Source: Granulicella sp. 5B5 (GTDB lineage Bacteria; Acidobacteriota; Terriglobia; Terriglobales; Acidobacteriaceae). From it: a stretch of DNA of 64,000 nucleotides. The stretch's first letter is position 1. Each line of letters opens with the position of its first letter. Shown here in pieces: positions 8,638-51,367 of this stretch. The position numbers were made by a program, and so were the translations under genes. The stretch lies in NCBI RefSeq assembly GCF_014083945.1, contig NZ_CP046444.1, positions 1,922,001-1,986,000 on the forward strand, given 5' to 3'. Under the pieces are notes generated by a model that worked only from the letters and a program-made list of their open reading frames with translations, did no database searches and had not been told where the DNA came from.

Positions 8638-8880
8638 CTCGCTTAGCCTCTTATTACTCTCGACTCGACTCCTCGTAGCTCTTATCTGAATATCTGAACA
8701 AAAACCTCTGTCAACCCCACATAACCTCCCCACCCCCTCAACCATCACAATCAAAACCACTTACACCCCAAAACCAAAAACACTTTTCCCACTCTCACCT
8801 TCTATACTGGAAGTAGGAACCAAACTGGCTCACTGGATAACTGGCAAACTGGCAACTGAAGCCACAAACCAATCACCGTT
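8638..8880. other. AT-richer spacer with short direct repeats
   Basis: No gene seen. The stretch 8826-8862 contains several AACTGGC/CACTGG direct repeats with ~7-8 bp spacing, again suggesting a short tandem repeat. Otherwise it is poly-A/C-rich and featureless. Confidence 0.4.
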
Positions 8881-9034
8881 CGCTCTATCCTCTATCCCCC
8901 TGTCCTCTATCCCCTTTATTTCCTATATCATACCCGTAACCATATACAGAATCAGCCACTTACCCTCGGGATCACCCCGTAAGTCGCTGATTCTGCTAGA
9001 TACCTCCGCTACATAGGGAGGGGGGAGGGGTATC
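8881..9034 (+). repeat. Dispersed 150-bp element, copy 1, upstream of serA
   Basis: Heptad-like CTCTATC repeats (8883-8916) lead into a 94-bp core (8925-9018) that matches the reverse complement of 18728-18821 at 88 of 94 positions. The core centre, 8947-8995, is an imperfect palindrome: CAGAATCAGC and ACTTAC pair with GTAAGT and GCTGATTCTG with one mismatch. A G-rich run follows. Its end lies about 90 bp upstream of the serA start. It is an uncharacterised mobile or regulatory repeat. Confidence 0.85.
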
Positions 9035-9124
9035 CCTCCACACCGCTGCGTCCGCCCAAGTACACTGTAGGTAAGTGTGCCTAGATCGCTGACCGCGACG
9101 TCAGAACCCTTTGGAGAAGCAGCC

Positions 9125-10789
9125 TTGAAGATCGTCCTCGCCGAAAAAGTCTCGCCCGCCACGCTCGCCATCCTGCAGAAGGAACCCGGCTGGAACTGCG
9201 TCACCGCCGACAAGATCACCGACCTGCCCGCCGAGCTGGCCGACGCCGACGCCCTCATCGTCCGCTCCGCCGTGCAGGCAGACGCCAAACTGCTCGCCGC
9301 CGCTCCGAAGCTCCGCATCATCGGCCGCGCCGGCGTCGGCGTGGACAACATCGACGCCGCCGAGGCCACCAAGCGCGGCATCGTGGTCATGAACACCCCC
9401 GGCGCCAACGCCGTCGCCGTCGCCGAACTCACCCTTGGTTTAATGATCTCCATGTGCCGCAAGATCCCGCAGGCCAACGCGGGCATGCACCAGGCCAAAT
9501 GGGACAAAAAGTCCCTGCAGGGCTCCGAGCTACGCGGCAAGACGCTCGGCATCATCGGCTGCGGCCGCATCGGCCTTGAGGTCGCCCGCCGCGCCAAGGC
9601 CTTCGGCATGGAGCTCCTCGGCTACGACCCCTTCATCGCGCCCGTCATCGCCCGCGAGAACGGCATCACGCTCGTTCCCATCGACGACATCTTCGGCCAG
9701 TCCGACTACCTCTCGCTGCACGTCGGCCTCACGCCGCAGACCGAAGGCCTCATCAACCAGACCTCGATCGCCATCATGAAGAAGGGCATCCGCATCATCA
9801 ACTGCGCCCGCGGCGAGCTCATCGTCGACGAGGCGCTCGCCGAGGCCATCAAGTCCGGCCACGTCGCCGGCGCGGCGCTCGACGTCTTCCGCCAGGAACC
9901 CCTCAAGGATTCGCCCTACTTCGGCCTCGACAACGTCCTTCTCTCCCCGCACATCGCCGGCTCCACCGACGAAGCGCAGGAGGCCATCGGCATCCAGCTC
10001 GCCAACCAGGTCCGCGACTACCTCAAGCTCGGCGTCGTCCAGAACGCCGTCAACGTCGCCTCCCTCACCGAGGAGGAGTACGCCGAGGTATCCCCCTACA
10101 TCGAGATGGCCAACCGCCTCGGCAAGCTCCTCGGCCACGCCGCCGGTTCCACCGGCAACACCAACACTGGCGGAAGCGCTGCGGCTACGGGTTCGGTAGA
10201 GAGCATCTCGCTCACTTTCAACGGCCGCCTCGCCCAGCTCAAGACCGACATGATCCGCAACGCCGCCATCGCCGGCGTGCTGCACGGCGCCGACGCCGTC
10301 AACCGCATCAACGCCTCCGCCGCTGCCGCCGAGCGCGGCATCCGCGTGCAGGAGGACAAGCGCGAGCACGTCTCCGGCGGCACCGGCTCCACGCTCCGCC
10401 TCGCTCTCCACTGGTCCCGCAAGGGCGAAGGCAGCAAGACCGACGAGGGCACCTGGAGCGGCGTCGCCACCGTCCTCCACGGCCACTCCCCGCGCCTGCT
10501 CTCCTACGACGGCATCGACGTCGAAGCCGAGCTCGCCGGAACCCTCGTCATCATCCGCAACCAGGATGTCCCCGGCGTCATCGGCCGCATCGGCACCATC
10601 CTCGGCGAGGCGAAGCTGAACATCGCCAACTTCGCGCTCGGCCGGAGCCGCAACACCCCCGGCGGCCAGGCCCTCGCCGTCGTCCAGCTGGACACACCCG
10701 CGCAGGCCGACCTAGACAAGGCCATCGCAGATCTCCGCAAGGTCGAGTCCATCACCAGCGTCCGCGTCGTCGAACTCGGCGCGCTGTAA
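9125..10789 (+). CDS. serA: D-3-phosphoglycerate dehydrogenase
   Basis: Catalyses the first step of serine synthesis, oxidising 3-phosphoglycerate with NAD+. The 554-residue product is of the long (Mycobacterium/Bacillus-like) type: an N-terminal substrate domain, NAD-binding domain (LGIIGCGRIGLEVARR), catalytic His in SPHIAGST, an intervening ASB domain and a C-terminal ACT domain (VPGVIGRIGTILGEAKLNIA) that senses serine. A Gly/Thr/Asn-rich linker separates catalytic and regulatory parts. The start is the TTG at 9125 (MKIVLAEKVSP) with GGAG 8 nt upstream. A terminator follows. Copy 1 of the dispersed element lies in its upstream region. Confidence 0.95.
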   Translation: MKIVLAEKVSPATLAILQKEPGWNCVTADKITDLPAELADADALIVRSAVQADAKLLAAAPKLRIIGRAGVGVDNIDAAEATKRGIVVMNTPGANAVAVAELTLGLMISMCRKIPQANAGMHQAKWDKKSLQGSELRGKTLGIIGCGRIGLEVARRAKAFGMELLGYDPFIAPVIARENGITLVPIDDIFGQSDYLSLHVGLTPQTEGLINQTSIAIMKKGIRIINCARGELIVDEALAEAIKSGHVAGAALDVFRQEPLKDSPYFGLDNVLLSPHIAGSTDEAQEAIGIQLANQVRDYLKLGVVQNAVNVASLTEEEYAEVSPYIEMANRLGKLLGHAAGSTGNTNTGGSAAATGSVESISLTFNGRLAQLKTDMIRNAAIAGVLHGADAVNRINASAAAAERGIRVQEDKREHVSGGTGSTLRLALHWSRKGEGSKTDEGTWSGVATVLHGHSPRLLSYDGIDVEAELAGTLVIIRNQDVPGVIGRIGTILGEAKLNIANFALGRSRNTPGGQALAVVQLDTPAQADLDKAIADLRKVESITSVRVVELGAL

Positions 10790-10810
10790 GCAATACGCTG
10801 TCCCACCAGG

Positions 10811-10845
10811 CACCTTCATGCAACCGCGTGAAGGTGTTTGCTTTT
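10811..10845 (+). terminator. Intrinsic terminator after serA
   Basis: CACCTTCA and TGAAGGTG form a perfect 8-bp stem with a 10-nt loop, followed by TTTGCTTTT. It ends the serA transcript 20 bp past the stop codon and argues against translation starts for the next gene before about 10850. Confidence 0.75.
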
Positions 10846-10888
10846 CCACCCATGTACGATTGACCCAACACCCACTGAGGTCTGTCGT

Positions 10889-12013
10889 TTGCCATCTGCC
10901 GCCTCAAAACCCAGCAGCTACATCCCCGGCCTCGACGGTATCCGCGCCATCGCCTTTCTTCTGGTTTTTTCCGCACATGCGCTCCTTGGCCTCAGCTACT
11001 ACATACCAGCAACGCTCGGCGTCACCATCTTCTTTTTTCTCAGCGGTTACCTCATCACCACGCTGCTCCGCCGCGAGTTCGCAGCAACCGGAACCATCGC
11101 CCTGCGCGACTTCTATCTTCGTCGCGTGCTCCGCATCTTCATCCCGCTCTACATCGTCTATGCCCTGGCTATGCTCGGCGCGCACTTCCTTACCCATCAA
11201 TCTCCGGGAAACCTCTTCGGCTTCGCCAGTGTTTATCTGTACTTCCACAACTACACAATTGCCCTCCGCGCCCATGCCTTCACCCCACCCGGCATGGAAC
11301 TCGTCTGGTCACTCTCGGTCGAAGAGCATTTCTACCTGCTCTTTCCACTCGCGTACTTTACTATGCTGCGTCGCGGCCTCTCGGCCCGTTCACAGGCACG
11401 CCTGCTCATCGGCTTTTGCCTGCTCGAACTTGCCTGGCGCGTTGTATTGATTGCATGGATCAAACCAGCTGGGCCGTGGACGTACGTTGCCACCGACGCT
11501 CGTCTGGACTCCATCCTTTGGGGTTCGGTGCTGGCAGTGCGCAACAACCCGGCCATCAGTACAGACCGCTCGATCCTTCCCAGGAACTACGAGCTGCTCT
11601 GCTTCCTGCTGGCCGTAGCTGGACTTGTTGCGACACTCATACCGCGGAGCGACCTTTATCGCGGAACTCTGCGTTACACGCTGCAGCCTCTCACGCTCTA
11701 TGTCATCTTCAGCTTTTTGATCCGCCACATTCGCCACCCGTTAGCCCGCTGGCTGGAGTGGCTACCATTGCGTTACATTGGCTGGACCTCTTACGTTCTT
11801 TACCTCTGCCACGACTTCTTCCTGTACGCGATTCAACCGCCTCTCGCCGCTCATCCCCTTCTAGTGGTGGTGTTCGGTTTTGCGGCGGCTCTGGGCTTTG
11901 CAACCCTGATGCGCTACACAGTGGAGCAGCCCGTCCAGCGACTGCGCGCGCGCCTGCGTCACCTCGTGCCGAACAATCCGGTCAACCTTGGACCAAGGGA
12001 GCAGACCACATGA
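10889..12013 (+). CDS. Acyltransferase 3 (OafA/YrhL-type membrane protein), first of a tandem pair
   Basis: Integral membrane acyltransferase that probably O-acylates a surface polysaccharide or lipid. The ~374-residue product shows the family's N-terminal GLDGIRAIAFLLVFSAH (Arg and catalytic-type His), FFFLSGYLI, RRVLRIFIPLY and WSLSVEEHFYLLFP motifs, and about ten hydrophobic helices. The preferred start is the TTG at 10889, 7 nt after GAGG; the frame is open to 10838, but that part overlaps the serA terminator. Its stop overlaps the start of the next gene by 4 bp (ATGA), so the two are translationally coupled. Substrate unknown. Confidence 0.9.
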   Translation: MPSAASKPSSYIPGLDGIRAIAFLLVFSAHALLGLSYYIPATLGVTIFFFLSGYLITTLLRREFAATGTIALRDFYLRRVLRIFIPLYIVYALAMLGAHFLTHQSPGNLFGFASVYLYFHNYTIALRAHAFTPPGMELVWSLSVEEHFYLLFPLAYFTMLRRGLSARSQARLLIGFCLLELAWRVVLIAWIKPAGPWTYVATDARLDSILWGSVLAVRNNPAISTDRSILPRNYELLCFLLAVAGLVATLIPRSDLYRGTLRYTLQPLTLYVIFSFLIRHIRHPLARWLEWLPLRYIGWTSYVLYLCHDFFLYAIQPPLAAHPLLVVVFGFAAALGFATLMRYTVEQPVQRLRARLRHLVPNNPVNLGPREQTT

Positions 12014-13167
12014 GCCGGGCAGATGCAGATACAGCAGACCAGGCTGTACGCAGAAGCTCGTACATCCCGGGCCTCGACGGCATCCGTGCCATTGCCTTCC
12101 TGCTGGTCTTCTGGGCCCATGCGCTCCCCGATGTCAGCTACTACATCCCGGCCACCCTCGGCGTTACTATCTTTTTTTTCCTCAGCGGCTACCTCATCAC
12201 CACGCTGCTCCGCCGCGAGCTAGAAGGCACAGGAACCATAGTCCTGCGCGACTTCTATCTGCGCCGCGTGCTCCGCATCTTCCTCCCGCTTTACGTCGTC
12301 TACGCGCTCGCCGCGGCCTACGCGCACTTCGTCCAGCACGACTCGATGGGAAACCTCAGCGGCTTCTTCTCCATGCTCTTCTACTACTACAACTATGCGA
12401 TGGCGCTCGGCGTCAAAGCCTGGGTCCCGCTGGGCATGAACGTCATCTGGTCGCTCTCGGTCGAGGAACACTTCTACATCCTCTTCCCATTGCTGTACCT
12501 GGCTCTCGTCCGCTCCCGGCTCGCGAAGGCTACTCAAACCCGGCTCCTCATCGGCTTCTGCCTGCTGGAGCTCGCCTGGCGCTTCTTCCTCGTCACCACC
12601 CACCACAACCAGCACCTCTGGACCTACTACGCCACCGACGCCCGTCTCGACTCCATCCTCTGGGGCTCAGTCCTGGCCCTTACCCACAACCCAGTCTTCT
12701 CCCGCTCCAACGGCGGCACCGACCGCTCCATCCTCCCGATCCGCCACACTACCCTGGCCTTCGCCGGCTGCGTGCTTCTGCTGCTGGCAACCCTCGTTCC
12801 ACGTAGCTTCCTCTACCGCGAGAGCCTGCGATACACCGTCCAGGCCCTGGCTCTGTACGGCATCTTCAGCTTCGTCATCCCCAACATCCAGCACCCGTCG
12901 GTCGCCTGGTTGGAGTGGAAGCCCCTGCGCTACCTCGGCTGGATCTCCTATGTTCTGTATCTCAGCCACGACTTCATCCTGAACGTCCTCACCCGCATCT
13001 GGCCGCACCGCTTTGCCCTCACGGGGTCCCTCAGCTTTGCCCTCGCCATCGCCTTCGCGACGCTGTTGCGCTACACCCTTGAGCTCCCCTTGCAACGCTT
13101 GCGTGGCCGTCTGCGCCACACGCCGGCAGAGCCACGGCTCCCCCAACAACCCTCCCAAATCCTGTAG
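12010..13167 (+). CDS. Acyltransferase 3, second of a tandem pair
   Basis: A 385-residue paralogue of the preceding protein, sharing long near-identical stretches such as SSYIPGLDGIRAIAFLLVF, ATLGVTIFFFLSGYLITTLL and the ATDARLDSILWGSVLA block. The family motifs are intact (DGIRAIAFLLVFWAH, WSLSVEEHFYILFP), so both copies look active. It starts at the ATG at 12010, overlapping the upstream stop, with GGGAG 8 nt before. Loop regions and the C-termini differ most. The pair appears to be a local tandem duplication; the two may have diverged in acyl acceptor. Confidence 0.92.
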   Translation: MSRADADTADQAVRRSSYIPGLDGIRAIAFLLVFWAHALPDVSYYIPATLGVTIFFFLSGYLITTLLRRELEGTGTIVLRDFYLRRVLRIFLPLYVVYALAAAYAHFVQHDSMGNLSGFFSMLFYYYNYAMALGVKAWVPLGMNVIWSLSVEEHFYILFPLLYLALVRSRLAKATQTRLLIGFCLLELAWRFFLVTTHHNQHLWTYYATDARLDSILWGSVLALTHNPVFSRSNGGTDRSILPIRHTTLAFAGCVLLLLATLVPRSFLYRESLRYTVQALALYGIFSFVIPNIQHPSVAWLEWKPLRYLGWISYVLYLSHDFILNVLTRIWPHRFALTGSLSFALAIAFATLLRYTLELPLQRLRGRLRHTPAEPRLPQQPSQIL

Positions 13168-13250
13168 ACTTGCTGCAGGTAAAACGAGGTAGCAACTCAG
13201 CCTCACCTCATTCTGTCTCACCGCTGTTGGTTAGGAAGAACCCTCCCCTC

Positions 13251-14303
13251 ATGGTCAAGATGCGCCGTAACGCCTCCCTTCTGCTTCTGTCATCCTCTCT
13301 GCTGTTCGCGGGCTGCCACAAGGGCCCCCAGGACGGCGTCGTCGCCACCGTCAACGGTCATCCCATCCTCCAGACCGAGGTCGACAAGATCTACACGCAG
13401 CAGCTGGCGAACAACCCGCAGCAACAGCAACCCTCGCCCGACCAGGCCGATTCGCTCAAACTCAACATCCTTCATGAGCTGATCGTCGAAGAGATCGTCG
13501 AGCAGCGCGCCGCCAAGGAAAACCTCACCGCCAGCGACGCCGATGTCGACGCCAAGCTCGTCGAGATGAAGGCCCCTTACACCGAGGAGCAGTTCCAGAC
13601 GCGTCTCAAAGCCTCCAACCTCACCATGGATGAGCTCCGTCATGATCTGCGCCGGTCGCTCACCCAGAGCAAGCTCCTGAACAAGGAGATCAACTCGCGC
13701 ATTACCGTCACCGACGCCGAAGTGACGAGCTACTACAACGCGCATAAGGCAGAGTTCAACCTGATCGAGCCGCAGTATCATCTCGCGCAAATCCAGGTCA
13801 CTGATCAGGGCGCAGCCCAGGCCGGCAACCTGCAGAACAACAAAGCGAGTGGTGACGAAGAGGCGCGCAAGAAGATCCAGGCCATCAAGAACCGTATCGA
13901 CACGGGTGACGACTTCGGCACATTGGCAGCGAACTTCTCTGAACGGCAGGATACTGCTCCCAACGGCGGCGATATGGGCTTCATTCCCGAGTCGCAGATG
14001 AAAGGCGACCCCGCGACCTATGCGGCGATCGTGAAGCTGAAGCCCGGCGAAACCACCGACATCCTTCCACTGCTCGACGCCCAGACCCATAAAGTCGCTG
14101 GTTACTCCATCTACAAGCTCATCAGCAGGGAGGCCGCCGGACAACGCGACCTCTCCGACCCGCGTGTCCAACAGAACATCCGCCAGCAACTCCACGACAG
14201 CCGCGCGCAGTTGCTCAAGGCAGCTTACTTCGAGATGCTCCGCGATCAGACCAAGGTAGAAAACTTCCTGGCTGAAAAGATCTTCAAGGACGTCGCGAAG
14301 TAG
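13251..14303 (+). CDS. PpiC/SurA-type peptidyl-prolyl isomerase lipoprotein
   Basis: Probable periplasmic chaperone. The 350-residue product has a signal peptide with lipobox (LLFAGC) and a SurA-like N-domain opening with VVATVNGHPILQTEVDKI. A rotamase core follows, with the blocks FNLIEPQYHLAQIQV and FSERQDTAPNGGDMGFIP. The helical C-terminus swaps back onto the N-domain in SurA relatives. ATG at 13251 was chosen with AGGAAG upstream; the ATG at 13260 is an alternative. It is followed without gap by the cytochrome c gene. Confidence 0.9.
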   Translation: MVKMRRNASLLLLSSSLLFAGCHKGPQDGVVATVNGHPILQTEVDKIYTQQLANNPQQQQPSPDQADSLKLNILHELIVEEIVEQRAAKENLTASDADVDAKLVEMKAPYTEEQFQTRLKASNLTMDELRHDLRRSLTQSKLLNKEINSRITVTDAEVTSYYNAHKAEFNLIEPQYHLAQIQVTDQGAAQAGNLQNNKASGDEEARKKIQAIKNRIDTGDDFGTLAANFSERQDTAPNGGDMGFIPESQMKGDPATYAAIVKLKPGETTDILPLLDAQTHKVAGYSIYKLISREAAGQRDLSDPRVQQNIRQQLHDSRAQLLKAAYFEMLRDQTKVENFLAEKIFKDVAK

Positions 14304-14330
14304 GTGACCGTGCCCCGAGGACCAAGAGCC

Positions 14331-14708
14331 GTGAAGCTTAGTTACGTCGAACGCCTTCGCTCGATGGCCGCCGCAGGCAGCTCCACCGTCGTCTGTCTGC
14401 TAGGCCTCACAGGCTGCCACTCGTACCCGCCGCCAACGCCCCTCGATCAGCTCACGGCGCAGCAGACACGCGGCCACGAGGTCTTCGAGCAGCACTGTTC
14501 ACTCTGCCATTACGACCGCAGCGACGGATCACTGCACGGCCCATCGCTCCTCAGCATGTACAAAAAGCCGTACCTGCACTCAGGCGCCCCCGCCAACGAC
14601 GACCGCGTCACCGAGACCATCCTGCACGGCCACAACCTGATGCCCGCCCAGCCCAACATGGACCCCGAAGATCTCAACGATCTGCTCGCGTACCTTCACA
14701 CGCTCTAA
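14331..14708 (+). CDS. Small cytochrome c lipoprotein
   Basis: Monoheme c-type cytochrome of about 125 residues. A hydrophobic N-terminus with lipobox LLGLTGC suggests outer-membrane or periplasmic anchoring. The heme motif CSLCH follows, with a downstream LMPAQPNM supplying the likely axial Met. It starts at a GTG (14331) with GAGG 10 nt upstream; further in-frame GTGs at 14304 and 14310 are possible. It sits between the PpiC lipoprotein and a small membrane protein in one plus-strand run. Likely electron-transfer role; the partner is unknown. Confidence 0.85.
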   Translation: MKLSYVERLRSMAAAGSSTVVCLLGLTGCHSYPPPTPLDQLTAQQTRGHEVFEQHCSLCHYDRSDGSLHGPSLLSMYKKPYLHSGAPANDDRVTETILHGHNLMPAQPNMDPEDLNDLLAYLHTL

Positions 14709-14724
14709 CCCAGGCCCGAACGCA

Positions 14725-15096
14725 ATGTCCCACTCCACGCAAACTCCCCCCGGCGCCCGTCCCCCACTGCTGCCAGGCATGGCCATGGTCGCGATGTACC
14801 TGTTGCTGATCGCGATGCTCAACGCCTTCGCGGCAATGCGCGGCACCTTTGGCACAGGAGCAGCGCGCTACAGCATCTTCGGCGTCTGCACCCTGATGGT
14901 CATCGGCGTCTTCGGCCTTCTGCGACAGGCACGCTGGGGTTGGTCGATCGTGACCGCTGGCTGCCTGCTGATGGCCGCTGGCTACTTCTACGGCTTCCAC
15001 CGGGCCCACGCCACGCCATATATCATTCAGGGCTTCTTCGACCTGCTCTTCTTCCTCTATCTGGTCCGCCCCGAAGTCCGCGAACGGCTGCGCTGA
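14725..15096 (+). CDS. Four-helix membrane protein of unknown function
   Basis: Small integral membrane protein (123 residues) with four predicted transmembrane segments (about residues 19-38, 47-65, 72-90 and 97-115). No family was recognised. It starts at the ATG at 14725, 16 bp after the cytochrome gene, so the two are probably co-transcribed. It has no conserved polar motif that would suggest catalysis. Confidence 0.75.
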   Translation: MSHSTQTPPGARPPLLPGMAMVAMYLLLIAMLNAFAAMRGTFGTGAARYSIFGVCTLMVIGVFGLLRQARWGWSIVTAGCLLMAAGYFYGFHRAHATPYIIQGFFDLLFFLYLVRPEVRERLR

Positions 15097-15197
15097 CCGC
15101 TGCCATCGGGAGCTCCGTCCAACGTCAGTTGCCCCGGCGGGCCTGCGCCAGCAAGCCTCTATACTTGTAGCTGACGGTCAACGATACGAATCCCACT

Positions 15198-16481
15198 ATG
15201 TCTACAGAAACAGCATCCGCTTTTGCTCCCGTCGCCGAGCAGCTCGACCTCATCACCAAGGGCGCAGCCGAGATTATTCCGCCTGCCGCGGCCTCCGCTG
15301 CCGACGCCCTCGCCGCGCGCCTCGAAGACTCGCGCAAAACCGGCGTCCCTCTCCGCATCAAGGCTGGCTTCGACCCCACCGCGCCGGACCTGCACCTCGG
15401 TCACACCGTGCTGATGCGCAAGCTCAAGCACTTCCAGCAACTCGGTCACACCGTCATCTTCCTCATCGGCGACTCCACCGCTCTCATCGGCGACCCCACC
15501 GGGAAAAACGTCACGCGCAAGCCGCTCACCCGCGAGGAGATCGACGCCAACGCCGAGACCTACAAAGAGCAGGTCTTCAAGATCCTCGACAAGGATAAGA
15601 CCGAAGTCCGCTACAACTCCGAGTGGCTCGACAAGCTCGGCTATGCGGGCATGGTGAAACTCGCCGCCAAGTTCACCGTCTCGCAGATGCTCGAGCGCGA
15701 AGACTTCCACAAGCGCTTCCAGGACGAGCAGCCCATCCATGTGCATGAGCTGCTGTACCCGATGGCGCAGGGCTACGACTCCGTCGCACTCGAGTGCGAT
15801 GTCGAGCTCGGTGGCACGGACCAGAAGTTCAACCTAATGCGTGGCCGCGACCTGCAGCGCGACGCCGGCCAGAAGCCACAGATCATCCTGATGACGCCGA
15901 TCCTCGAAGGTCTCGACGGCGTACAGAAGATGTCCAAGTCGCTCGGCAACGCCATCGGCATCAAGGAACCGCCAACAGAGATGTACGGCAAGCTGATGAG
16001 CATCAATGACGAGTTGATGTGGAAGTACTGGACCTTCCTTACCGACCTGCCGCAGTCGCAGATCGATGCCATGCGCGCCTCAGTGGCCGAAGGCAAGCTG
16101 CATCCGATGCAGGCCAAGAAGGACCTCGCGCACTCCATCACCGCAGACTTCCACTCGAAGGCCGAAGCTGATGCTGCCGCCGAAAGTTGGGCCACGCAGT
16201 TCCAGCAGAAGGGCGTGACAGAGGACGTCCCTGAAGTCACCGTCTCGCTCTCGTCGGAAGGGCTCCCTGCGGCGGATGGTTCCGGCCTCCGCATTGCGAA
16301 GCTGCTACAGCTTGCAGGCCTCGCGGCATCGGCCGGTGAAGCTACACGCAAGCTCGCGGAGAACGCCGTCTCCATCAATGGGGACAAGTTCACAGGCAAG
16401 ACGCTCACGCAGGAAGAACTCGGCAAGACACCGACTCTGCGGCTCGGTAAGAAGGCCGTGCGCGTGAACTGGGCTGCGTAG
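15198..16481 (+). CDS. tyrS: Tyrosyl-tRNA synthetase
   Basis: Charges tRNA-Tyr. The 427-residue class I synthetase has the HIGH-type motif HLGH (66-69, in [12 protein letters not shown]), the KMSKS loop (244-248) and a C-terminal S4 RNA-binding domain ([20 protein letters not shown]). The KMSKS form and the overall length place it in the TyrZ/TyrRS2 subgroup rather than the E. coli TyrS type. ATG start at 15198. Its neighbours are not translation genes, so it probably has its own promoter. Confidence 0.96.
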
Positions 16482-16508
16482 CGAGATCTTTGGTACACGG
16501 AGCGGCGC

Positions 16509-17954
16509 ATGGCGTTACGCACGGCCAACATCATCGGCTCCGGACCCAACGGCTTAGCAGCGGCCATCACCCTCGCGCAACGCGGCGTCGCGGTCACGGT
16601 CTACGAACGCAACGACCGCATCGGCGGGGCCTGCTCCAGCGCTGAGATCACGCTGCCTGGCTTCGTGCATGACCTCGGCTCGTCGGCGTATCCGCTCGGC
16701 ATCGCCAGCCCCTTCTTCCGCTCGCTGCCGTTGGAGCAGCACGGCCTGCGCTGGGTACAGCCCAATGCTCCTGTAGCGCACCCTCTCGACAACGGCGAGG
16801 CCGTGGTGCTGGAGCCATCGCTCGACCGAATGGGTGAGCAACTCTCCACGCATGATGCCAAAGCCTGGCGCGCACTCTTCGGACCGTGCGTCGCCCACTG
16901 GGATGCACTGCTGGACGACGTGATGCAGCCACTGCTTCGCCTGCCGAGTCATCCTTTCATCACCGCACGCTTCGGCCTGCCTGCATTGCTGTCTGCCGCC
17001 ACACTCGCCAGTCTGCTCTTCCGTGACGAGCGCACGAAAGCCCTCTTCGCCGGCATCGCGGCGCACTCCGTACTGCCACTGACAAACATTGCAAGCGCAT
17101 CCGCAAGCATGCTGCTCGGCACAGCAGGACACGCGAGCGGCTGGCCTATTGCCGCAGGCGGCGCGCAGTCGCTAACCAACGCACTTGCCGCGTATCTCCG
17201 CTCGCTCGGTGGAACGATCATCACTGGCGTCGAGGTGCGCGCGCTGAGCCAACTGCCACCAGCCGATGCAACCCTCTTCGACACCAGCGCGACAGTGATG
17301 GCCACCATCGCGCACGACGCTCTCGACGCAGGCTACCTGCGCAAGCTGCGAGCCTACAGGCTCGGCCCCGGAGCCTTCAAGATTGACTACGCACTCAGCG
17401 CGCCGATTCCCTGGAAGAACCCACAGTGCCTGCGTGCAGCGACAGTACACGTCGGCGGCACGCTCGCGGAGATCGCCGCCTCCGAGGACGCAGCCTTCTA
17501 TGGACACCTCAGCGACAAGCCCTACGTCCTCGTCGTCCAACCGAGCCTCTTCGACGCCTCTCGTGCACCCGAGGGCAAGCACACGGCCTGGGCCTACTGT
17601 CACGTGCCCAGCGGCTCCGACATGGACCGCACCGCAGCCATCGAGGCACAGATCGAACGCTTCGCTCCGGGATTCCGCGACTGTGTGCTGGCACGGCGAG
17701 CCAGTAACGCCTCGGCCCTCACCGTATGGGACCCGAACCTCGCCGGCGGGGACATCTCCGGCGGCGCGTTGACGCTGAAACAGATCGTTGCGCGGCCGAC
17801 GCTCAGCGCCTACCGCACCAGCAATCCGGCACTCTATCTGTGCAGCGCGTTCACGCCGCCGGGCGGTGGCGTGCATGGCATGTGCGGACACAACGCCGCG
17901 CTTGAGGCACTGCGCATACTCAACCACCCGCGAGATGGCTCGCGGGTGGTTTGA
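16509..17954 (+). CDS. Phytoene dehydrogenase-like FAD oxidoreductase
   Basis: FAD-dependent amine-oxidase-fold protein of 481 residues. The N-terminal dinucleotide motif GSGPNGLAAAITLAQRGVAV is followed by the second FAD motif YERNDRIGGACSS, and the C-terminal FAD-contact block GGGVHGMCGHNAA is present. It resembles CrtI/PDH-like proteins of unassigned substrate (the human PYROXD2 group), not a desaturase in a carotenoid cluster: no crt genes are nearby. It starts 27 bp after tyrS. The last codons form one arm of the terminator shared with infC. Confidence 0.88.
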   Translation: MALRTANIIGSGPNGLAAAITLAQRGVAVTVYERNDRIGGACSSAEITLPGFVHDLGSSAYPLGIASPFFRSLPLEQHGLRWVQPNAPVAHPLDNGEAVVLEPSLDRMGEQLSTHDAKAWRALFGPCVAHWDALLDDVMQPLLRLPSHPFITARFGLPALLSAATLASLLFRDERTKALFAGIAAHSVLPLTNIASASASMLLGTAGHASGWPIAAGGAQSLTNALAAYLRSLGGTIITGVEVRALSQLPPADATLFDTSATVMATIAHDALDAGYLRKLRAYRLGPGAFKIDYALSAPIPWKNPQCLRAATVHVGGTLAEIAASEDAAFYGHLSDKPYVLVVQPSLFDASRAPEGKHTAWAYCHVPSGSDMDRTAAIEAQIERFAPGFRDCVLARRASNASALTVWDPNLAGGDISGGALTLKQIVARPTLSAYRTSNPALYLCSAFTPPGGGVHGMCGHNAALEALRILNHPRDGSRVV

Positions 17955-17957
17955 TTT
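17922..17957. terminator. Strong bidirectional hairpin between convergent genes
   Basis: A perfect 13-bp stem (17922-17934 with 17939-17951) around the loop ATGG. The left arm and loop are coding sequence, and the stop codon of the flavoprotein gene (17952-17954) follows immediately. A short T-rich stretch follows on the plus strand. It probably separates the convergent flavoprotein and infC transcripts. Confidence 0.7.
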
Positions 17958-17966
17958 GCAGCAGAG

Positions 17967-18575
17967 TTACTTGGCTGCGGGCGGGGTGGCCGGGGCTGCG
18001 GGCTCTGGGGCCTTGGGTTTGGGAGGTGCCGGGGCCTCGGCCTTCTTGGAGGGGGCGAGGATGGCGTGCAGCGTGGTGCCTTCCATGCGGGGCATGAACT
18101 CCACCGTGCCGGCATCGCCGATGTCCATGATGAGGCGGTTGATGATCTTGTAGCCGAGATCGCGGTGCGCCATCTGGCGGCCCTTGAAGCGGAGGCTCGC
18201 CTTCACCTTGTCGCCTTCACCGAGGAAGCGGACAGCCTGGTTCTTCTTGGTCTGGTAGTCGTGCTCGTCCACGGTGACCGAGAACTTGACTTCCTTGATG
18301 ACGATGACCTTCTGCTTCTTGCGGGCGGCGCGCTCGGACTTGTCCTTCTCGTAGAGGAACTTACCGTAGTCCTGGATCTTGCAGACGGGCGGGACGGCGT
18401 TGGGCGAGATCTCGACCAGATCGAGGGAGCGCTCGCGGGCCATCTTCAGCGCCTCAAACGGCGCCATCACGCCGAGCTGTTCGCCGTTCTCGTCAATCAC
18501 GCGCACCTCGCGTGCGCGAATGCGTTCGTTGGTACGAATAAAGGACTTTGCGGAGCGTTTATCTAACGGTGGAAT
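17967..18575 (-). CDS. infC: Translation initiation factor IF-3 (AUU start)
   Basis: Keeps 30S subunits free and proofreads the initiator codon. The IF3 domains are clear (N-domain RTNERIRAREVRVI, C-domain KEVKFSVTVDEHDYQTK), and an Ala/Pro/Lys-rich tail extends the C-terminus. The proposed start is ATT at 18573-18575: a perfect GGAGG (18582-18586) sits exactly 6 nt upstream, and infC is the classic gene with AUU/AUC/AUA starts used for autoregulation. A TTG at 18629 is in frame, but the 18 extra codons do not resemble IF3. The product would be 202 residues. Confidence 0.93.
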   Translation of the reverse strand: MPPLDKRSAKSFIRTNERIRAREVRVIDENGEQLGVMAPFEALKMARERSLDLVEISPNAVPPVCKIQDYGKFLYEKDKSERAARKKQKVIVIKEVKFSVTVDEHDYQTKKNQAVRFLGEGDKVKASLRFKGRQMAHRDLGYKIINRLIMDIGDAGTVEFMPRMEGTTLHAILAPSKKAEAPAPPKPKAPEPAAPATPPAAK

Positions 18576-18699
18576 AAGCAGCCTCCACGGCGCGCTTGCG
18601 CAGCGGCCATGTTTTTCTTGGGGATTCAATTGGCTGGGTACGCAAAAACCATTACCTCAGCAATGGCGAGTATAGCATCCGCAGCGAAAACGGCGATCT

Positions 18700-18863
18700 G
18701 GCGATACCCCCTACCCCCTCCCCCCTACCCTATGTAGCGGAGGTATACAGCAGAATCAGCGACTTACGGGGTGATCCCGGAGGTATGTGGCTGATTCTTT
18801 ATATGGTTACGGGTATGATATTGCCAGCAAAGGGGATAGAGGACAGGGGCAGAGGATAGAGCG
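18700..18863 (-). repeat. Dispersed 150-bp element, copy 2, upstream of infC
   Basis: The inverted copy of the element at 8881-9034. The 94-bp core spans 18728-18821. The CTCTATC-type repeats lie at the high-coordinate end, and a longer G-rich run (minus strand, 18707-18730, four runs of three or more G) lies at the infC side. It ends about 125 bp upstream of the infC start and has the same orientation toward infC as copy 1 has toward serA. Confidence 0.85.
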
Positions 18864-19201
18864 GGCTGGGACGGGTTTGCAGCTCTCAGTTCTCCGTGAG
18901 TCCCTTTGCTCCCCTACTTCCAGTATAGCGGACACAGAAGAAAAATCTTCAATCCCTTCAGGCTCTAAAACGATTTGATTTCAGTAAGTTACAGCCTCAC
19001 AAGCAACAGGCAGGCTTGACATCGCGATTTCAGGGGGTTTCAGCCTGCAAGAAAACATCTGTTGGTGGCAACGAAAGGTTTGTTAGCAGGCCACATCGTA
19101 TGCCGCCAGAATTCATACCCGCTTCAACGGGTGTTCACAGGGCTGGCTTATTCCAGAGACTGCACTGCCAAAAAATCTCCTCGATCGAGGCCGATACCTG
19201 T
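18864..19201. other. Spacer upstream of the phosphoesterase gene
   Basis: No gene supported. It lies between the element copy and the phosphoesterase start, with GC content lower than in the coding regions. The frame of the next gene is open here, but the translation lacks any signal peptide or family similarity. Confidence 0.4.
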
Positions 19202-33298: not shown

Positions 33299-33881
33299 GG
33301 AGGGAGCAGGGGCCTTAAGGCCCCTGACTTCAGGCAGTGGAAGATGGGGCTTTAGCCCCGGGCCTTATGCTGAACACCATGCACCGTGCCCCCCAAGAGC
33401 TACGCACTTATTTCCTCACTATCGTCACCGCCCAACGCCGCCGCCTGTTCCAAGTCACTGCCACCGCAGAGCTCATGCGCGACACCCTCTTCCATTACCG
33501 CGACGAGGGCAAGTATGCACTCCACGCCTACGTCGTTATGCCGGACCATATCCATCTCTGCCTAACGCCTGCTCCGGACATCTCCCTCGAAAAGTCAATG
33601 CAATTCATCAAGGGCGGCTTTTCCTTTCGACTAAAGAGCAAACTCGATGTCTGGATGCGTGGCTACAACGAAGCCCAGATTCGTACTCCTGAAAAATTTT
33701 CGGCTTGCCGCCGCTATATCGAAGACAACCCTGTCCGCAAACATCTTTGCGAAGCGCCTCTTCTATACCTGTATTCGTCGGCCGATGATCTACGCATTGA
33801 TCCTGCACCCGAACACCTCCGGGGCTAAAGCCCGATCCTGGGCGCGGCTAGTTCAGGGGCCTGAAGGCCCCTGCTCCCTCC
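33299..33881. mobile_element. REP-flanked RAYT element with 29-bp inverted ends
   Basis: The ends 33299-33327 and 33853-33881 are inverted repeats matching at 28 of 29 positions, each containing a GGGGCC-type palindrome. Inside them lies a second inverted pair, 33346-33362 and 33819-33833, built on GGGGCTTTAGCCCC. The transposase gene fills the centre and uses the right inner repeat for its stop codon. The arrangement (REP-transposase-REP, about 583 bp) matches the REPtron concept for RAYTs. Confidence 0.85.
33367..33828 (+). CDS. REP-associated tyrosine transposase (RAYT, Y1 family)
   Basis: 153-residue Y1-type HUH single-stranded DNA transposase related to IS200/IS605 TnpA, thought to mobilise REP palindromes. 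The HUH motif is H61-I-H63 in VVMPDHIHLCL. The family features RTYFLTIVTAQRRRLF near the N-terminus and ACRRYIEDNPVRK near the C-terminus are present. The catalytic Tyr cannot be assigned with certainty; Y100 is a candidate. The start is the ATG at 33367, right after the left inner palindrome, and the TAA stop lies within the right one. It is probably intact. Confidence 0.85.
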   Translation: MLNTMHRAPQELRTYFLTIVTAQRRRLFQVTATAELMRDTLFHYRDEGKYALHAYVVMPDHIHLCLTPAPDISLEKSMQFIKGGFSFRLKSKLDVWMRGYNEAQIRTPEKFSACRRYIEDNPVRKHLCEAPLLYLYSSADDLRIDPAPEHLRG

Positions 33882-41071: not shown

Positions 41072-42069
41072 CTGCCCACATAGGGGTTCGGCGTACCCGG
41101 CGTTCCGACGGGGGGCGGCGGCGGATTCTCCGGCCGCTCCGGCAACACAACGCGTGGCGCGTCGACACCGTGCATGGGAATCTGCCCGCCGCGAAGCCCG
41201 GCAAGAATCTGCGTCTGGAAGTCATTCGATGCACCCGGGTTGTTGGGCAGGAAGAGCGTATTGGTTCCCCCACGCGTTCCGATATCGCGCAGCGTGTCGA
41301 AGTACTGCGTCAGCAGCACCAGCGCCATAACCTCGCCGGCAGAGGTGTTCGGAACGCCCTGCTGGAAGTGCTCGATCGAGGCGGAGAGGCCGTCGATGAT
41401 CGCCTGCCGCTCGCGCGCGATACCGTTGCCCTGCAGCGCCTTCGACTCCGCTTCGGCCTCAGCCTGCTTTACCTTCAGGATCTTCTCTGCCTCGCCGCGC
41501 GCCTGCGCCGCAACCTGCGCGCGCTGCGCCGCGTTGATGTCGTTCATCGCGGTCTTCACCTTGATGTCCGGGATGATGTCCGTCACCAGCGCGGTAAGAA
41601 TGTTGAAGCCGAACCCGCTCATGATCTGGTCCAGCTCGTTCTTCACCGCCACTGAAATCCCCGACTGCTGCTCGAACGTCTCATCCAGCGTCAGCTTCGG
41701 CACATGCCCCAGGATCGAGTTGAACACGAAGCTCTCAATCTGCTTCTGCGGGCTCGACAGCTTGTAAAACGCATCGGCAATCTTGTCATCCAGCACCTGG
41801 TATTGCACGCTCACCGGGATCTGAACGAACACGTTGTCGTGCGTCTTGGTCTCCACCGAGAACTGCGCCTGCTTCACCATCAGGTCGACAAAGTACACGC
41901 GCTCGGCGAATGGCATCAGCAGATGCAGCCCCGGCCGCGTGATGCGAACGAACTTGCCAAAGCGTTCCACCACACCCGCTGTAGCGGTGCGCACGGTATA
42001 GTACGTCTTCGCAATCAGAATCAGAACAAACAGCGCAGCGACAAGCAGCAACAACAAAACCGGCGTCAT
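41068..42069 (-). CDS. SPFH/Band 7 (stomatin-like) membrane protein
   Basis: 333-residue protein with one N-terminal membrane helix (LLLLLVAALFVLILIA) and an SPFH domain (VVERFGKFVRITRPGLHLLMPF, FVQIPVSVQYQV). A long Ala/Glu/Gln coiled coil follows (QRAQVAAQARGEAEKILKVK), then a Pro-rich tail. It resembles paraslipin/HflK-like scaffolds that organise membrane microdomains or modulate proteases. No NfeD partner is adjacent. The stop codon shares the CTAG palindrome with the tag stop. Confidence 0.92.
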   Translation of the reverse strand: MTPVLLLLLVAALFVLILIAKTYYTVRTATAGVVERFGKFVRITRPGLHLLMPFAERVYFVDLMVKQAQFSVETKTHDNVFVQIPVSVQYQVLDDKIADAFYKLSSPQKQIESFVFNSILGHVPKLTLDETFEQQSGISVAVKNELDQIMSGFGFNILTALVTDIIPDIKVKTAMNDINAAQRAQVAAQARGEAEKILKVKQAEAEAESKALQGNGIARERQAIIDGLSASIEHFQQGVPNTSAGEVMALVLLTQYFDTLRDIGTRGGTNTLFLPNNPGASNDFQTQILAGLRGGQIPMHGVDAPRVVLPERPENPPPPPVGTPGTPNPYVGS

Positions 42070-42225
42070 AGATGCGTCTCCAATACGAGCCTAAGCATAT
42101 ACCGCCGCCGCGCACGGCCTGCATGAATTCGAGAAATCTCGCTAACCGCACACGCACTGCTGCTCATCTGCGCCAAAATCATTGATAGCAACGTCTCCCA
42201 AGTACAGCCTACACAGGAGCCCTCC

Positions 42226-43926
42226 ATGCAGCGTCTCAGCCGTCTCGCGCAAGCCAGCTTCGCCGTCTCTCTCTGCCTCGCCGCCCCGCTCCTCGCGCAG
42301 ACGCCCTCGCAGCCCACGCCGCCCGTCTCGCTCCCCGCAAATCTCCCTGTACTCTCCGCAGCCGAGCAGGCGCGGCTCGACCCGCTGCTCATGGAAATCG
42401 ACATCCCGCGCCTTCGCGCGCTCTACGCCGCGCACAAGCTCACCGTCACGCAGGTCACGCGCTGGTACATCACCCGCATCGCGCGTTACGACGGCATCTA
42501 TCGCGACGTGCAGACCGTCGACGCCACCGGCGCGCTCGCCATCGCCAAACACGAAGACGCCAACCACTCCACCCCGCATGGCCCGCTCTGGGGCGTCCCC
42601 ATGGTCATCAAAGCCAACACCGCCATCCAGGGCCTCCCCGACACCGACGGCTGGGCCGGCTTCGCCATCCCCGGCCATGAGTTCATCGCGCCCCGCGATG
42701 CCACCGTCGTCGCCCGCCTCCGTGCCGCAGGAGTCGTTATTCTCGGCATCACCAACATGCCCGACTTTGCCGCCAGCGACACCAACCGCTCCACCGCCTT
42801 TGGCCGCACCGGCAACGCGTATGACGTCCGCTTTTCTCCCGGCGGCTCCTCCGGGGGCACCGTCACGGCAGTCACCTCGAACGAAGCCGTGCTTGGCACC
42901 GGCACCGATACTGCCAACTCCATCCGCATGCCGTCGGGCACCAGCTCCGTCGTCGGCCTGCTGCCCACGCGCGGCCTCACCTCCATCGCCGGCATCGCGC
43001 CGCTCGACTGGCTCCGCGACAACACCGGCCCCATCTCCCGCAACGTCACCGACGTCGCCATAGCCCTCGGTGTGATGGCCGGTGAAGACCCGCTCGACTT
43101 CCGCACAGAAGGCTCCGCGCAGAAAGCCCAACCCGGTCCCTACACGCAGTACCTCAAGAAGGACGCGCTCAAAGGCAAACGTTTCGGCGTCCCCGCCTTC
43201 ATCCTCGCCACAGCTACCAGCGACTACCGTGGCCGCTCCAACGGCATGCAGCCCGAGACACGCGCCATGCTGATGCAGACACTCGACCAGCTCCGCGCCG
43301 CCGGCGCCACCATCGTCATCGACGACAACCTGCTGCCTGCATCCTTCCTCGAGCTCATCCGCAAGGTCGACACACAGCCCTATCGCAAGGACGGAGCCGA
43401 CCAGTGGCTCGCCGCCTTCGGCCCCGCCGAATACCACACCGGCGCCGAGTACGAAAAAGCCACCGGCCAGCCCATGCCGCCCGTCTTCACCGGCGCGCCG
43501 CGCAGGCCGTCACCTGACACGCCTCCACAGACCGTCCTCAAGACTGACCCCAACGCCGACAAAAACTTCTTCGGCCCGCAGCGCGAAGCCCTCGCCGCCT
43601 ACAACGACACCCTCACAAAGTTCCACCTCGACGGCCTCGTCTACCCCAGCGCCCAGATGCCTCCGCCCGACGAGACCATGCCGCAAAACGGCCAGCTCTC
43701 CGGCGGCCCACACTCCGCCACCGGCTGGGTCAACAGTATCGGCATCCCGGCCATCGTGGTGCCCGCAGGCTACTATCCCAACGGCCTGCCCTTCGGCCTC
43801 GAAATCGACACACGCCAGTGGCACGACGGCGACCTGCTCGGCTACGCGTATGCCTATGAGCAGGCCACCCACCTCCGCAAACCACCCGTGCTTGTAGAAA
43901 AGGGCCTGCTGCCGATCCCGCAGTAG
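42226..43926 (+). CDS. Secreted amidase, amidase signature family
   Basis: 566-residue hydrolase with a signal peptide (ASFAVSLCLAAPLLAQ). The Ser-Ser-Lys catalytic triad of the amidase signature family is visible: K129 (VIKANT), S208/S209 (GGSSGGT) and S232 in GTDTANSIRMPS. It cleaves an amide or ester of unknown structure outside the cytoplasm. Its start has AGGAG upstream. It ends 26 bp before the convergent fucosidase gene; a functional link is not established. Confidence 0.9.
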   Translation: MQRLSRLAQASFAVSLCLAAPLLAQTPSQPTPPVSLPANLPVLSAAEQARLDPLLMEIDIPRLRALYAAHKLTVTQVTRWYITRIARYDGIYRDVQTVDATGALAIAKHEDANHSTPHGPLWGVPMVIKANTAIQGLPDTDGWAGFAIPGHEFIAPRDATVVARLRAAGVVILGITNMPDFAASDTNRSTAFGRTGNAYDVRFSPGGSSGGTVTAVTSNEAVLGTGTDTANSIRMPSGTSSVVGLLPTRGLTSIAGIAPLDWLRDNTGPISRNVTDVAIALGVMAGEDPLDFRTEGSAQKAQPGPYTQYLKKDALKGKRFGVPAFILATATSDYRGRSNGMQPETRAMLMQTLDQLRAAGATIVIDDNLLPASFLELIRKVDTQPYRKDGADQWLAAFGPAEYHTGAEYEKATGQPMPPVFTGAPRRPSPDTPPQTVLKTDPNADKNFFGPQREALAAYNDTLTKFHLDGLVYPSAQMPPPDETMPQNGQLSGGPHSATGWVNSIGIPAIVVPAGYYPNGLPFGLEIDTRQWHDGDLLGYAYAYEQATHLRKPPVLVEKGLLPIPQ

Positions 43927-43952
43927 ACCCTTCCCTTCAACACAAACAGCCG

Positions 43953-45548: not shown

Positions 45549-45642
45549 GCCGAATTCTCTCCCTGAAAGTAAGCGCTAACTGCGAACCGCCTGAGCGACC
45601 ACTATAGTGCCTCACCGCACGCTTAGGGAAGGAATCTGAAAA

Positions 45643-47685: not shown

Positions 47686-47729
47686 CCCTTCTATTCTAGC
47701 GATTCACAGCCTTCCGCTACCATGAATCC

Positions 47730-48374
47730 ATGCTCGAACTCTCCCTCACCGAAGCCCGCGTCCTCGGCTGTCTCATTGAAAAAGAGATCACCACGCCGGA
47801 GTACTACCCGCTCTCGCTCAATGCCACGCTGAATGCCTGCAACCAGAAGACCAACCGCGAGCCCGTCATGGAGCTCACGGAAGCCGACGTCCGCACAGCG
47901 ATCTTCGACCTCGAAGGTCTCGGCCTCGTCCGCACCGACGCCTCCTCACGCGTCTCCAAGTTCGAGCACCGCATCCGCGACATCCTCAACCTCCGCCGCG
48001 ACGAGGTCGCCGTCCTCTGTCTCCTCCTACTGCGTGGCCCGCAGACACCCGCCGAGATCCGCGCCCGCGCCGAACGCCTCCACGCCTTCGACGACAACGC
48101 CGCCGTCACCTCCACCCTCGAGCGCCTCAGCCAGCGCGATGAACCGCTCACCCTCCATCTGCAGCGCCAGCCCGGCGCACGCGAGACCCGCTGGATGCAC
48201 CTGCTTTCCGGCACCGTCGCGCAGGAGGTCGCACCGCTTGCAACCGCCCAACGCTCCTCCATCGCGCCCAACCTCCTCGACCAGCTCGCCGCCCTGGAAG
48301 CGCGTGTCGCCGCTCTGGAAGCGCGCCTGGACACCCTCGAACCACTCACCGCGCCAGTCGCCTCTATTGAATAG
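47730..48374 (+). CDS. YceH/DUF480 family protein
   Basis: 214-residue protein made of two winged-helix domains. It begins LSLTEARVLGCLIEKEITTPEYYPLSLNA, the standard DUF480 signature, and contains TNREPVMELTEADVR and RWMHLL. A short leucine-zipper-like coiled coil ends the protein (LEARVAALEARLDTLE). Its function is not established; the fold suggests DNA binding. It is divergent from mnmG with a 44-bp spacer that must hold both promoters or overlapping signals. Confidence 0.88.
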   Translation: MLELSLTEARVLGCLIEKEITTPEYYPLSLNATLNACNQKTNREPVMELTEADVRTAIFDLEGLGLVRTDASSRVSKFEHRIRDILNLRRDEVAVLCLLLLRGPQTPAEIRARAERLHAFDDNAAVTSTLERLSQRDEPLTLHLQRQPGARETRWMHLLSGTVAQEVAPLATAQRSSIAPNLLDQLAALEARVAALEARLDTLEPLTAPVASIE

Positions 48375-48481
48375 CCGCACGGAAAAACCGGCCCCGCCAC
48401 CGCTCTCGCCGTACTATTCTTGTCCCACAGCGTCAAGACGCCATCATTCGCAACAGCCTCTTCCTTTAGGAGTGCCATCGC

Positions 48482-51310: not shown

Positions 51311-51330
51311 TCCTCACTCGCAATAACAAT

Positions 51331-51367
51331 GAGGCGCGACCGCAAGGTTGCGCCTCCTGTTTTTTTC
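51331..51367 (+). terminator. Intrinsic terminator after the M16 peptidase gene
   Basis: GAGGCGC-G-ACC pairs with GGT-T-GCGCCTC around GCAA, then CTG and a run of seven T. It lies 20 bp past the stop codon. Confidence 0.85.

What the first reader, a model, noticed from the sequence alone, without database searches (positions are those of the whole stretch)
8881..18863. A 94-bp palindromic element sits upstream of both serA and infC in the same relative orientation
Positions 8925-9018 (plus) and 18728-18821 (minus) match at 88 of 94 positions. Each has a central imperfect palindrome (cagaatcagc...gctgattctg with inner acttac/gtaagt), flanking CTCTATC-type repeats and a G-rich run. Copy 1 ends ~90 bp before serA and copy 2 ~125 bp before infC, both facing their gene. 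This suggests a mobile element with preferred insertion upstream of genes, or a shared 5' regulatory RNA/operator. The two copies also form an inverted pair across 9.8 kb, so they could support inversion of the serA-infC segment.
Basis: partly seen in the sequence, partly recalled or inferred. Interest (0 to 1): 0.78.

Follow-up and report, generated by a model that had tools for sequence, protein, structure and literature searches.

The report
Dispersed elements that send strand bias
The repeat beside serA and infC is one of about fifty fixed, one-directional DNA elements in this soil bacterium, and from one end of most of them a strong bias in DNA-strand composition runs outward for tens of thousands of bases, as if each were a small starting point for DNA copying or repair.

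Summary
In detail: 88 of 94 positions match. The element is larger (about 330 bp) and occurs about 48 times in this 3.93-Mb genome. None of 46 copies lies inside a called gene. Related elements were found in 44 of 120 sampled genomes of the same family. It is not a 5' regulator of serA and infC: only 20 of 46 copies face a gene start. Its unexpected property is polarity. On the element's own strand C exceeds G, most strongly just outside its left end (four-fold-site skew -0.65), and the bias weakens over tens of kb. The sign follows orientation in 42 of 46 own copies. Written down as a prediction and tested in other genera, it held in 20 of 21 (16 of 16 in the best genome; weak in three others). 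Close neighbours are nearly always convergent (11 of 13 gaps under 20 kb, none divergent), and 5 of 6 sharp origin-type skew flips lie between convergent copies. The segment between convergent copies, serA-infC included, is inverted in a relative at 3 of 9 pairs. Best reading: dispersed, origin-like start sites of one-way, strand-asymmetric DNA synthesis; this mechanism is inferred. Window copy 2 is one of four copies without the bias.

The parts
8709..9034 (+). Element copy 1 (full unit, left box to right end)
   Evidence: The stretch from about 8664 to 9024 is identical to the copy at 2147262.
8709..8718 (+). Left box TGTCAACCCC of copy 1
   Evidence: Conserved in the alignment of 46 own copies; seen also in other genera
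8803..8808 (+). TATACT box of copy 1 (like a -10 promoter hexamer, reading right)
   Evidence: Conserved; TATACT or TATAAT at the same place in many G137 copies. Transcription not tested.
8947..8995 (+). Palindrome of copy 1
   Evidence: stem covaries across the genus, not significantly between own and G025 alone
9016..9030 (+). G-run GGGAGGGGGGAGGGG of copy 1
18703..19021 (-). Element copy 2 (full unit)
19012..19021 (-). Left box TGTCAAGCCT of copy 2
18922..18927 (-). TATACT box of copy 2
18751..18799 (-). Palindrome of copy 2
18707..18730 (-). G-run of copy 2
9035..18702 (.). Segment between the convergent copies (serA to infC), inverted relative to its right flank in G025
   Evidence: contig C51
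5000..8708 (.). Outward side of copy 1: GC skew -0.26 to -0.42 per kb
   Evidence: The outward side of copy 2 (19-28 kb) shows only -0.11 to +0.20.

Best explanation
Each element is a fixed, polar start site for a one-way, strand-asymmetric DNA process, most likely DNA synthesis by strand displacement, that is, a small dispersed origin-like site. The process leaves from the element's left end and runs outward for tens of kb, with the strand opposite to the element's own strand in the leading or displaced role. SHOWN by computation: anatomy, copy number, polarity, one-sided and weakening skew, convergent pairing, inversions and concerted sequence change. INFERRED: that the cause is DNA synthesis; that the repeated GTAA..TTAC units bind an initiator; that the TATACT box makes a short RNA or opens the DNA; that the exposed or newly made strand gains C through error-prone or biased repair.
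For: Left-side third-position skew negative in 42 of 46 own copies, mean -0.42; right side 37 of 46, mean -0.29; left more negative than right in 36 of 46. On 800 kb an outward-from-left model gives R2 0.588, a symmetric one 0.543, a bidirectional origin at each element 0.363; 0 of 2000 orientation shuffles and 0 of 2000 shifts reach it. Twelve kb left against right of 15 elements: -0.214 and -0.056, Wilcoxon p = 1.8e-4. Four-fold-site skew falls outward from -0.65 (0-2.5 kb) to -0.34 (40-60 kb). Equal in genes of both strands. G012: -0.38 and +0.38 just outside a convergent pair, near 0 between. Prediction written and tested: left negative in 20 of 21, one of them at -0.000; G137 16 of 16, mean -0.204 against -0.075 on the right. 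G025 27 of 29. Gaps under 20 kb: 11 convergent, 2 same, 0 divergent; 4 of 20000 permutations.
Against: The mechanism is not observed. The symmetric model is nearly as good (0.543) and the best orientation shuffle reached 0.572. Four own copies lack the left bias: 1940751- (window copy 2), 2035149+, 1603131+, 1608052+. In G137 the left is more negative than the right in only 10 of 16; effects in G054, G099 and G047 are weak or absent. The decay is not clean: 2.848-2.936 Mb stays at 0.04 to 0.34 for about 90 kb without a recognised copy inside, the 60-90 kb bin is -0.38, and a small 90-150 kb bin (647 sites) is -0.71. One sharp flip (2.808-2.812 Mb) and the negative stretch at window 42-57 kb have no matching element. 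At 3258143 the G025 copy is reversed, yet the local skew pattern is the same as in the own genome. The spectrum is C for G with no matching change of AT skew, unlike plain cytosine deamination. The TATACT box reads right while the bias runs left. No DnaA-box cluster was found near the pairs examined.
Confidence: 0.4

Rival explanations
1. Recombination-initiating site (directed hot spot): breaks or nicks are processed outward from the element, and biased repair or conversion raises C on one strand.
For: GC at four-fold sites rises toward the element (0.76 at 40-60 kb to 0.86 at 0-2.5 kb). Inversions between inverted copies at 3 of 9 pairs. Copies change in concert: orthologous 66.0%, non-orthologous between species 65.6%, within species 75.6%, 14 pairs.
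Against: No break or nick was observed. By ordinary 5'-end resection from a break at the element the exposed strand would be the other one, if C is lost by deamination (inference). Concerted change can also come from a shared binding protein.
Confidence: 0.22
2. Nick-initiated strand transfer or rolling-circle start (oriT-like or HUH-like): one strand is nicked at the element and displaced or transferred outward, with distance-limited run.
For: One-sidedness, hairpin and repeated units, and distance decay fit. Y1_Tnp-type HUH genes occur in 12 of 12 genomes checked.
Against: Y1_Tnp also occurs where no element was found, for example G001 and G003. None of the three own Y1_Tnp genes is within 14 kb of a copy. 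Relaxases were not searched.
Confidence: 0.15
3. True multiple origins: full chromosomal forks start at convergent pairs and replicate the chromosome, with the elements as their parts.
For: Five of 6 sharp minus-to-plus flips in 800 kb lie between convergent copies, and 5 of 6 plus-to-minus changes are gradual, by eye. dnaA lies 7 kb from one pair.
Against: 3.324-3.444 Mb has skew within 0.08 in 28 of 30 bins although forks must cross it. In G012 the skew starts at the elements, not in the middle. DnaA-box clusters not seen in the stretches scanned.
Confidence: 0.1
4. Ordinary miniature mobile element or shared 5' regulatory RNA; the link to skew is a by-product, for example insertion by strand into DNA that already had the bias.
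For: Many copies; one copy identical over about 360 bp at a distant place; no target-site analysis was conclusive.
Against: The skew begins at the element and weakens away from it. Positions are shared with G025 in 16 of 23 placeable cases. Only 20 of 46 copies precede a gene start. In the window Rfam finds only a tRNA at gathering scores.
Confidence: 0.08
5. Polar replication-fork trap (Tus/Ter-like).
For: Polar orientation and palindromic protein-site look.
Against: A trap should leave the stronger bias on the other side (inference); the right-end model fits only with the opposite sign.
Confidence: 0.03

Closest known systems
Bacterial oriC and its GC-skew switch (recalled)
   Same: Minus-to-plus skew flip between convergent copies; bias runs outward
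   Different: About fifty sites; each single element acts one way; no DnaA-box cluster in the stretches scanned; far background near zero
Iteron-type plasmid origins (recalled)
   Same: Repeated units next to a promoter-like box; one-way action
   Different: Chromosomal, dispersed, no linked initiator gene recognised; Rep_3 initiator family absent in 12 of 12 genomes
Mitochondrial light-strand promoter with conserved sequence block II (recalled)
   Same: Promoter-like box followed by a GGGGGG-A-GGGG-like run; strong strand asymmetry
   Different: There synthesis runs with the transcript; here the bias runs against the direction of the TATACT box
Run-off replication linked to Bartonella gene transfer agents (PMC2697382, seen only in a search listing)
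   Same: Local chromosomal DNA synthesis outside oriC
   Different: A phage-linked region there (details recalled); about fifty non-coding sites here
Chi and KOPS polar sequences (recalled)
   Same: Orientation follows strand polarity
   Different: Those are 8-base motifs; here a 330-bp unit with the bias starting at the unit
REP/BIME elements with RAYT transposases (recalled)
   Same: Repeated intergenic palindromes
   Different: Much longer unit, polar skew, no own RAYT gene within 14 kb of a copy

Membership tests
5' regulatory RNA / riboswitch | Lies in sense upstream of the regulated gene | tested here: not met
   20 of 46 copies
5' regulatory RNA / riboswitch | Match to a described RNA family | tested here: not met
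   Only a tRNA in the window at gathering scores; permissive search not run
REP/BIME with RAYT | Cognate transposase gene flanked by the repeat | tested here: not met
   Three own Y1_Tnp genes, none within 14 kb of a copy. In G025 one lies about 0.3 kb from an element and in G012 about 1.8 kb.
MITE | Terminal inverted repeats and target-site duplications | tested here: inconclusive
   Only short GATA-CCCC / GGGG-TATC ends seen by eye; no duplication established
Replication origin (oriC type) | Cluster of DnaA boxes | tested here: not met
   At most 3 near-boxes per 500 bp in 800 kb, 1 near dnaA; 900 kb scanned of 3.93 Mb, TTATCCACA with one mismatch only
Replication origin (oriC type) | Minus-to-plus skew switch | tested here: met
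   Between convergent copies in 5 of 6 flips in 800 kb; not at single elements
Dispersed start site of DNA synthesis | Strand starts or copy-number excess at the site in living cells | not testable with these tools
   No sequencing reads available
Iteron-type plasmid origin | Tandem initiator-binding repeats | tested here: inconclusive
   Repeated units read by eye in G099, G012 and G137 copies; binding unknown
Iteron-type plasmid origin | Rep_3 initiator protein | tested here: not met
   0 of 12 genomes; other initiator families not searched
Tus/Ter-like fork trap | Bias stronger on the side shielded by the trap | tested here: not met
   Right-end model fits only with the opposite sign; -0.214 left, -0.056 right
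oriT / rolling-circle origin | Strand-specific nick and relaxase or HUH protein | not testable with these tools
   Only Y1_Tnp was searched

The most novel reading that the evidence does not exclude
Bacteria of this family carry about fifty dispersed, mostly vertically inherited, one-way DNA-synthesis start sites per chromosome, arranged so that close neighbours never run head-on. Beside oriC the chromosome would then be served by many local origins with a mutation process of their own, which rewrites codon usage for tens of kb around each site.
Probability: 0.3. Interest if true: 0.96.

Novelty: categorically new. Interest (0 to 1): 0.86.

Why it matters
Bacterial GC skew is usually read as the mark of one origin and one terminus. 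Here a non-coding element family sets skew locally: within 5 kb outside an element, four-fold sites carry four to five times more C than G on one strand, while a 120-kb element-free stretch has almost none. If the elements start DNA synthesis, single-origin replication is not the whole story in a major soil lineage. If they start recombination, they are a bacterial counterpart of directed hot spots. Either way a defined 330-bp sequence can be deleted or turned round, and its effect on strands, mutations and inversions measured.

Tried and rejected
5' regulator of serA and infC: rejected on gene context. REP/RAYT: rejected on location in the own genome; presence of Y1_Tnp does not tell genomes apart (12 of 12). 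Gene-end function: the right end lies within 12 bp of a stop codon in 17 of 26 cases, but 20 of 46 copies face gene starts; a terminator role alone does not fit. Transcription as cause of the skew: rejected, the four-fold-site skew is alike in genes of both strands. Inversions of a once single-origin chromosome: disfavoured, since 5 of 6 plus-to-minus changes are gradual while minus-to-plus flips are sharp (by eye), and relatives share the pairs. Fork trap: disfavoured on side. Rep_3 initiator: 0 of 12 genomes. A matS-like terminus role was considered because only 3 of 46 copies lie outside 0.96-3.48 Mb; set aside once dnaA mapped to 2.14 Mb. Model R1 had only 6 base pairs and R2 none, so both act as sequence models. 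Papers: searches listed nothing that describes these elements; I saw listings with the starts of abstracts, and passages of PMC4148992, where GC skew appears only in figure legends. Most subscription papers are not in that library.
Full report
1. The observation. The two stretches match at 88 of 94 positions. In the own genome (one contig, 3,928,701 bases; the window is 1922001-1986000) BLAST with 180 bases finds 40 strong copies (72 candidates, 40 scored) and a core pattern finds 44 sites with 0 in the control. The union is 46. A covariance model adds the pair 2219035+/2222650- and a weak hit at 2316533-. The 46 are used for context, 48 for spacing; the weak hit was left out.

2. Anatomy. Alignment of the 46 copies shows a unit of about 330 bp: left box TGTCAASCCC; a stretch poor in G; CTATACTGGAAGTAGG; about 100 variable bases; then CTAACCCC..ATATCATACCCGTAACC, the palindrome, and GGGAGGGGGGAGGGG. 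Most copies fetched from another genus (G137) keep the left box, a GTGGCGTATnAGTTA box and a TATACT/TATAAT box; several then have a terminator-like hairpin with a T-run, followed by repeated GTAAC..TTTTGC units and the G-run (read by eye; G054 and G047 copies show little of the left part). The stem covaries across the genus: 34 doubly changed cells against 16.0 with sd 3.1 in shuffles, 0 of 500. Between own and G025 alone it does not (71 of 500).

3. Gene context. With a home-made gene caller 0 of 46 copies lie inside genes. Left/right neighbours in element orientation: convergent 17, ++ 13, -- 9, divergent 7. Where the right gene ends at the element (26), the stop codon lies within 12 bp of the assumed right end in 17 and within 30 bp in 22; where it starts away from it (20), the distance is 21-319 bp. 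This does not fit a regulator of downstream genes.

4. Age. Of 29 whose surroundings were fetched, 16 map onto an own element (15 in the same orientation, 1 reversed, at 3258143), 7 map to own DNA without one, and 6 have no match in the own DNA fetched. For 14 pairs taken as orthologous, copies at one place are no more alike (66.0%) than copies at different places in the two species (65.6%), while copies within a species are 75.6% alike (one of these pairs, L065, did not pass the later mapping test and one, L081, is the reversed copy). Positions are kept; sequences change in concert. In a sample of 120 genomes of the family, 44 match a sequence model at E <= 1e-4 (29 of 62 genera). In an order-wide sample 41 of 120 match at E <= 1e-6; those listed are all of the same family, but whether other families were drawn is not shown.

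5. Strand bias in the own genome. Loci around the copies have strong GC skew whose sign follows element orientation. In the 4 kb left of the element the third-position skew is negative in 42 of 46 (mean -0.42); on the right in 37 of 46 (mean -0.29); the left is the more negative in 36 of 46. The four exceptions on the left are 1940751- (window copy 2), 2035149+, 1603131+ and 1608052+. A contiguous 400 kb and the next 400 kb (parts of it had been seen around elements before) show 6 sharp minus-to-plus flips, 5 of them between convergent copies, and 6 plus-to-minus changes, 5 gradual and 1 (near 3.084 Mb) fairly sharp, by eye. In 3.324-3.444 Mb, without elements, 28 of 30 bins of 4 kb lie within 0.08 of zero. 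Against this, 2.848-2.936 Mb keeps a skew of 0.04-0.34 over about 90 kb with no recognised copy inside. On the 800 kb an outward-from-left model gives R2 0.588 at 40 kb decay, a symmetric model 0.543, a bidirectional origin at each element 0.363; a right-end model fits only with the opposite sign. Shuffled orientations or shifted positions reached the observed value 0 of 2000 times each, with a best orientation shuffle of 0.572. Twelve kb on each side of 15 elements: -0.214 against -0.056, Wilcoxon p = 1.8e-4.

6. What changes. At four-fold sites in negative domains C is 0.64-0.69 and G 0.15-0.19; in positive domains C is 0.13-0.18 and G 0.64-0.71; elsewhere C and G are about equal. AT skew follows gene strand, not domain. 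Outward the skew goes from -0.65 to -0.34 and GC from 0.86 to 0.76 between 0-2.5 and 40-60 kb. The 60-90 kb bin is -0.38, and a small 90-150 kb bin (647 sites) is -0.71, so the decline does not continue; copies not recognised may be the reason. Right of the element inside convergent pairs it is -0.38, -0.13, -0.09, +0.12 in successive bins up to 15 kb, then -0.27 on 78 sites.

7. Other genomes. In G012, a genus relative with diverged copies, the skew is about -0.38 just outside the left element, near 0 between, +0.38 just outside the right one, and weakens outward. In G003, where no element was found, 27 of 30 bins of a 120-kb sample lie within 0.10 of zero, with one flip from -0.19 to +0.14. 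A prediction was written down. Then 21 elements were tested: all 16 shown of 26 in G137, 3 of 20 in G054, 1 of 10 in G099, 1 of 18 in G047. The left 8 kb are below zero in 20 of 21 (one of these at -0.000), mean -0.167; the right in 12 of 21, mean -0.053. By genome: G137 left 16 of 16 (mean -0.204), right 10 of 16 (mean -0.075), left more negative than right in 10 of 16; G054, G099 and G047 weak or absent. In G025 the left is negative in 27 of 29.

8. Arrangement. Of 13 gaps under 20 kb, 11 are convergent, 2 same-direction, 0 divergent. Convergent gaps are 3.6-31 kb, divergent 27-550 kb (12 each); Mann-Whitney p = 4.7e-5; 4 of 20000 orientation permutations reach the ratio of medians. dnaA is 7 kb from one pair, and three parS-like palindromes (two mismatches to the recalled consensus) lie about 31 kb from it; suggestive only.

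9. Inversions. In G025 the segment between convergent copies is inverted relative to a flank at the window pair (C51, right flank), at 2219035+/2222650- (C130, both flanks; G025 has an element at only one junction) and at 3462053+/3478141- (C149, right flank). No inversion is seen, on the sides covered, at 2840/2847, 3119/3130, 2723/2737, 408/413, 3040/3051 and 3258/3289 (left side): 3 of 9. The other three of 12 pairs were not covered. At 3258143 the G025 copy itself is reversed and lacks the left box nearby, while the local skew is as in the own genome; an older pair that lost one member in each species would explain both, but this was not tested.

10. Reading. The side of the bias, its start at the element and its weakening with distance fit a source better than a passive marker or a barrier. 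Leftward one-way synthesis or strand displacement gives the right strand. The C-for-G spectrum and the rise of GC leave room for recombination with biased repair. The promoter-like box points the other way, so priming by its transcript in the usual sense is unlikely. I hold the mechanism at 0.4, and that element orientation and local strand bias are linked at well above 0.9.

Noticed in passing
window 42000-57000: GC skew of -0.15 to -0.30 per kb, as strong as around copy 1, with no recognised element.
   Followed up: partly
window 33367-33828: A Y1_Tnp-type (RAYT-like) gene, one of three in the genome.
   Followed up: partly
G025 contig C46 25234-25518; G012 contig C61 109590-109811: Y1_Tnp-type genes about 0.3 kb and 1.8 kb from an element.
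   Followed up: no
L110 (G012), left of the match: Three tandem copies of a CTAACCCCAATGAATG.AATATCTTACC unit ahead of the palindrome, iteron-like.
   Followed up: no
own genome 1162243 (-) and 2081583 (-): GGGGGGTATC sites outside the known copies; possible diverged elements.
   Followed up: no
own copies whose right neighbour ends at the element: Stop codon is TAG in 20 of 26, against 119 of 273 called genes overall.
   Followed up: no
own genome 2.808-2.812 Mb: A sharp minus-to-plus skew flip with no minus-strand partner copy.
   Followed up: no
own 3258143 and G025 L081: Same place, opposite element orientation, same skew pattern.
   Followed up: partly
left flanks of many copies (listing): Other repeats: GTGGCGAAACTTGGC.., TCATTTCGACCGGAGC.., and ACTCCCTATTCCC tandems.
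   Followed up: no
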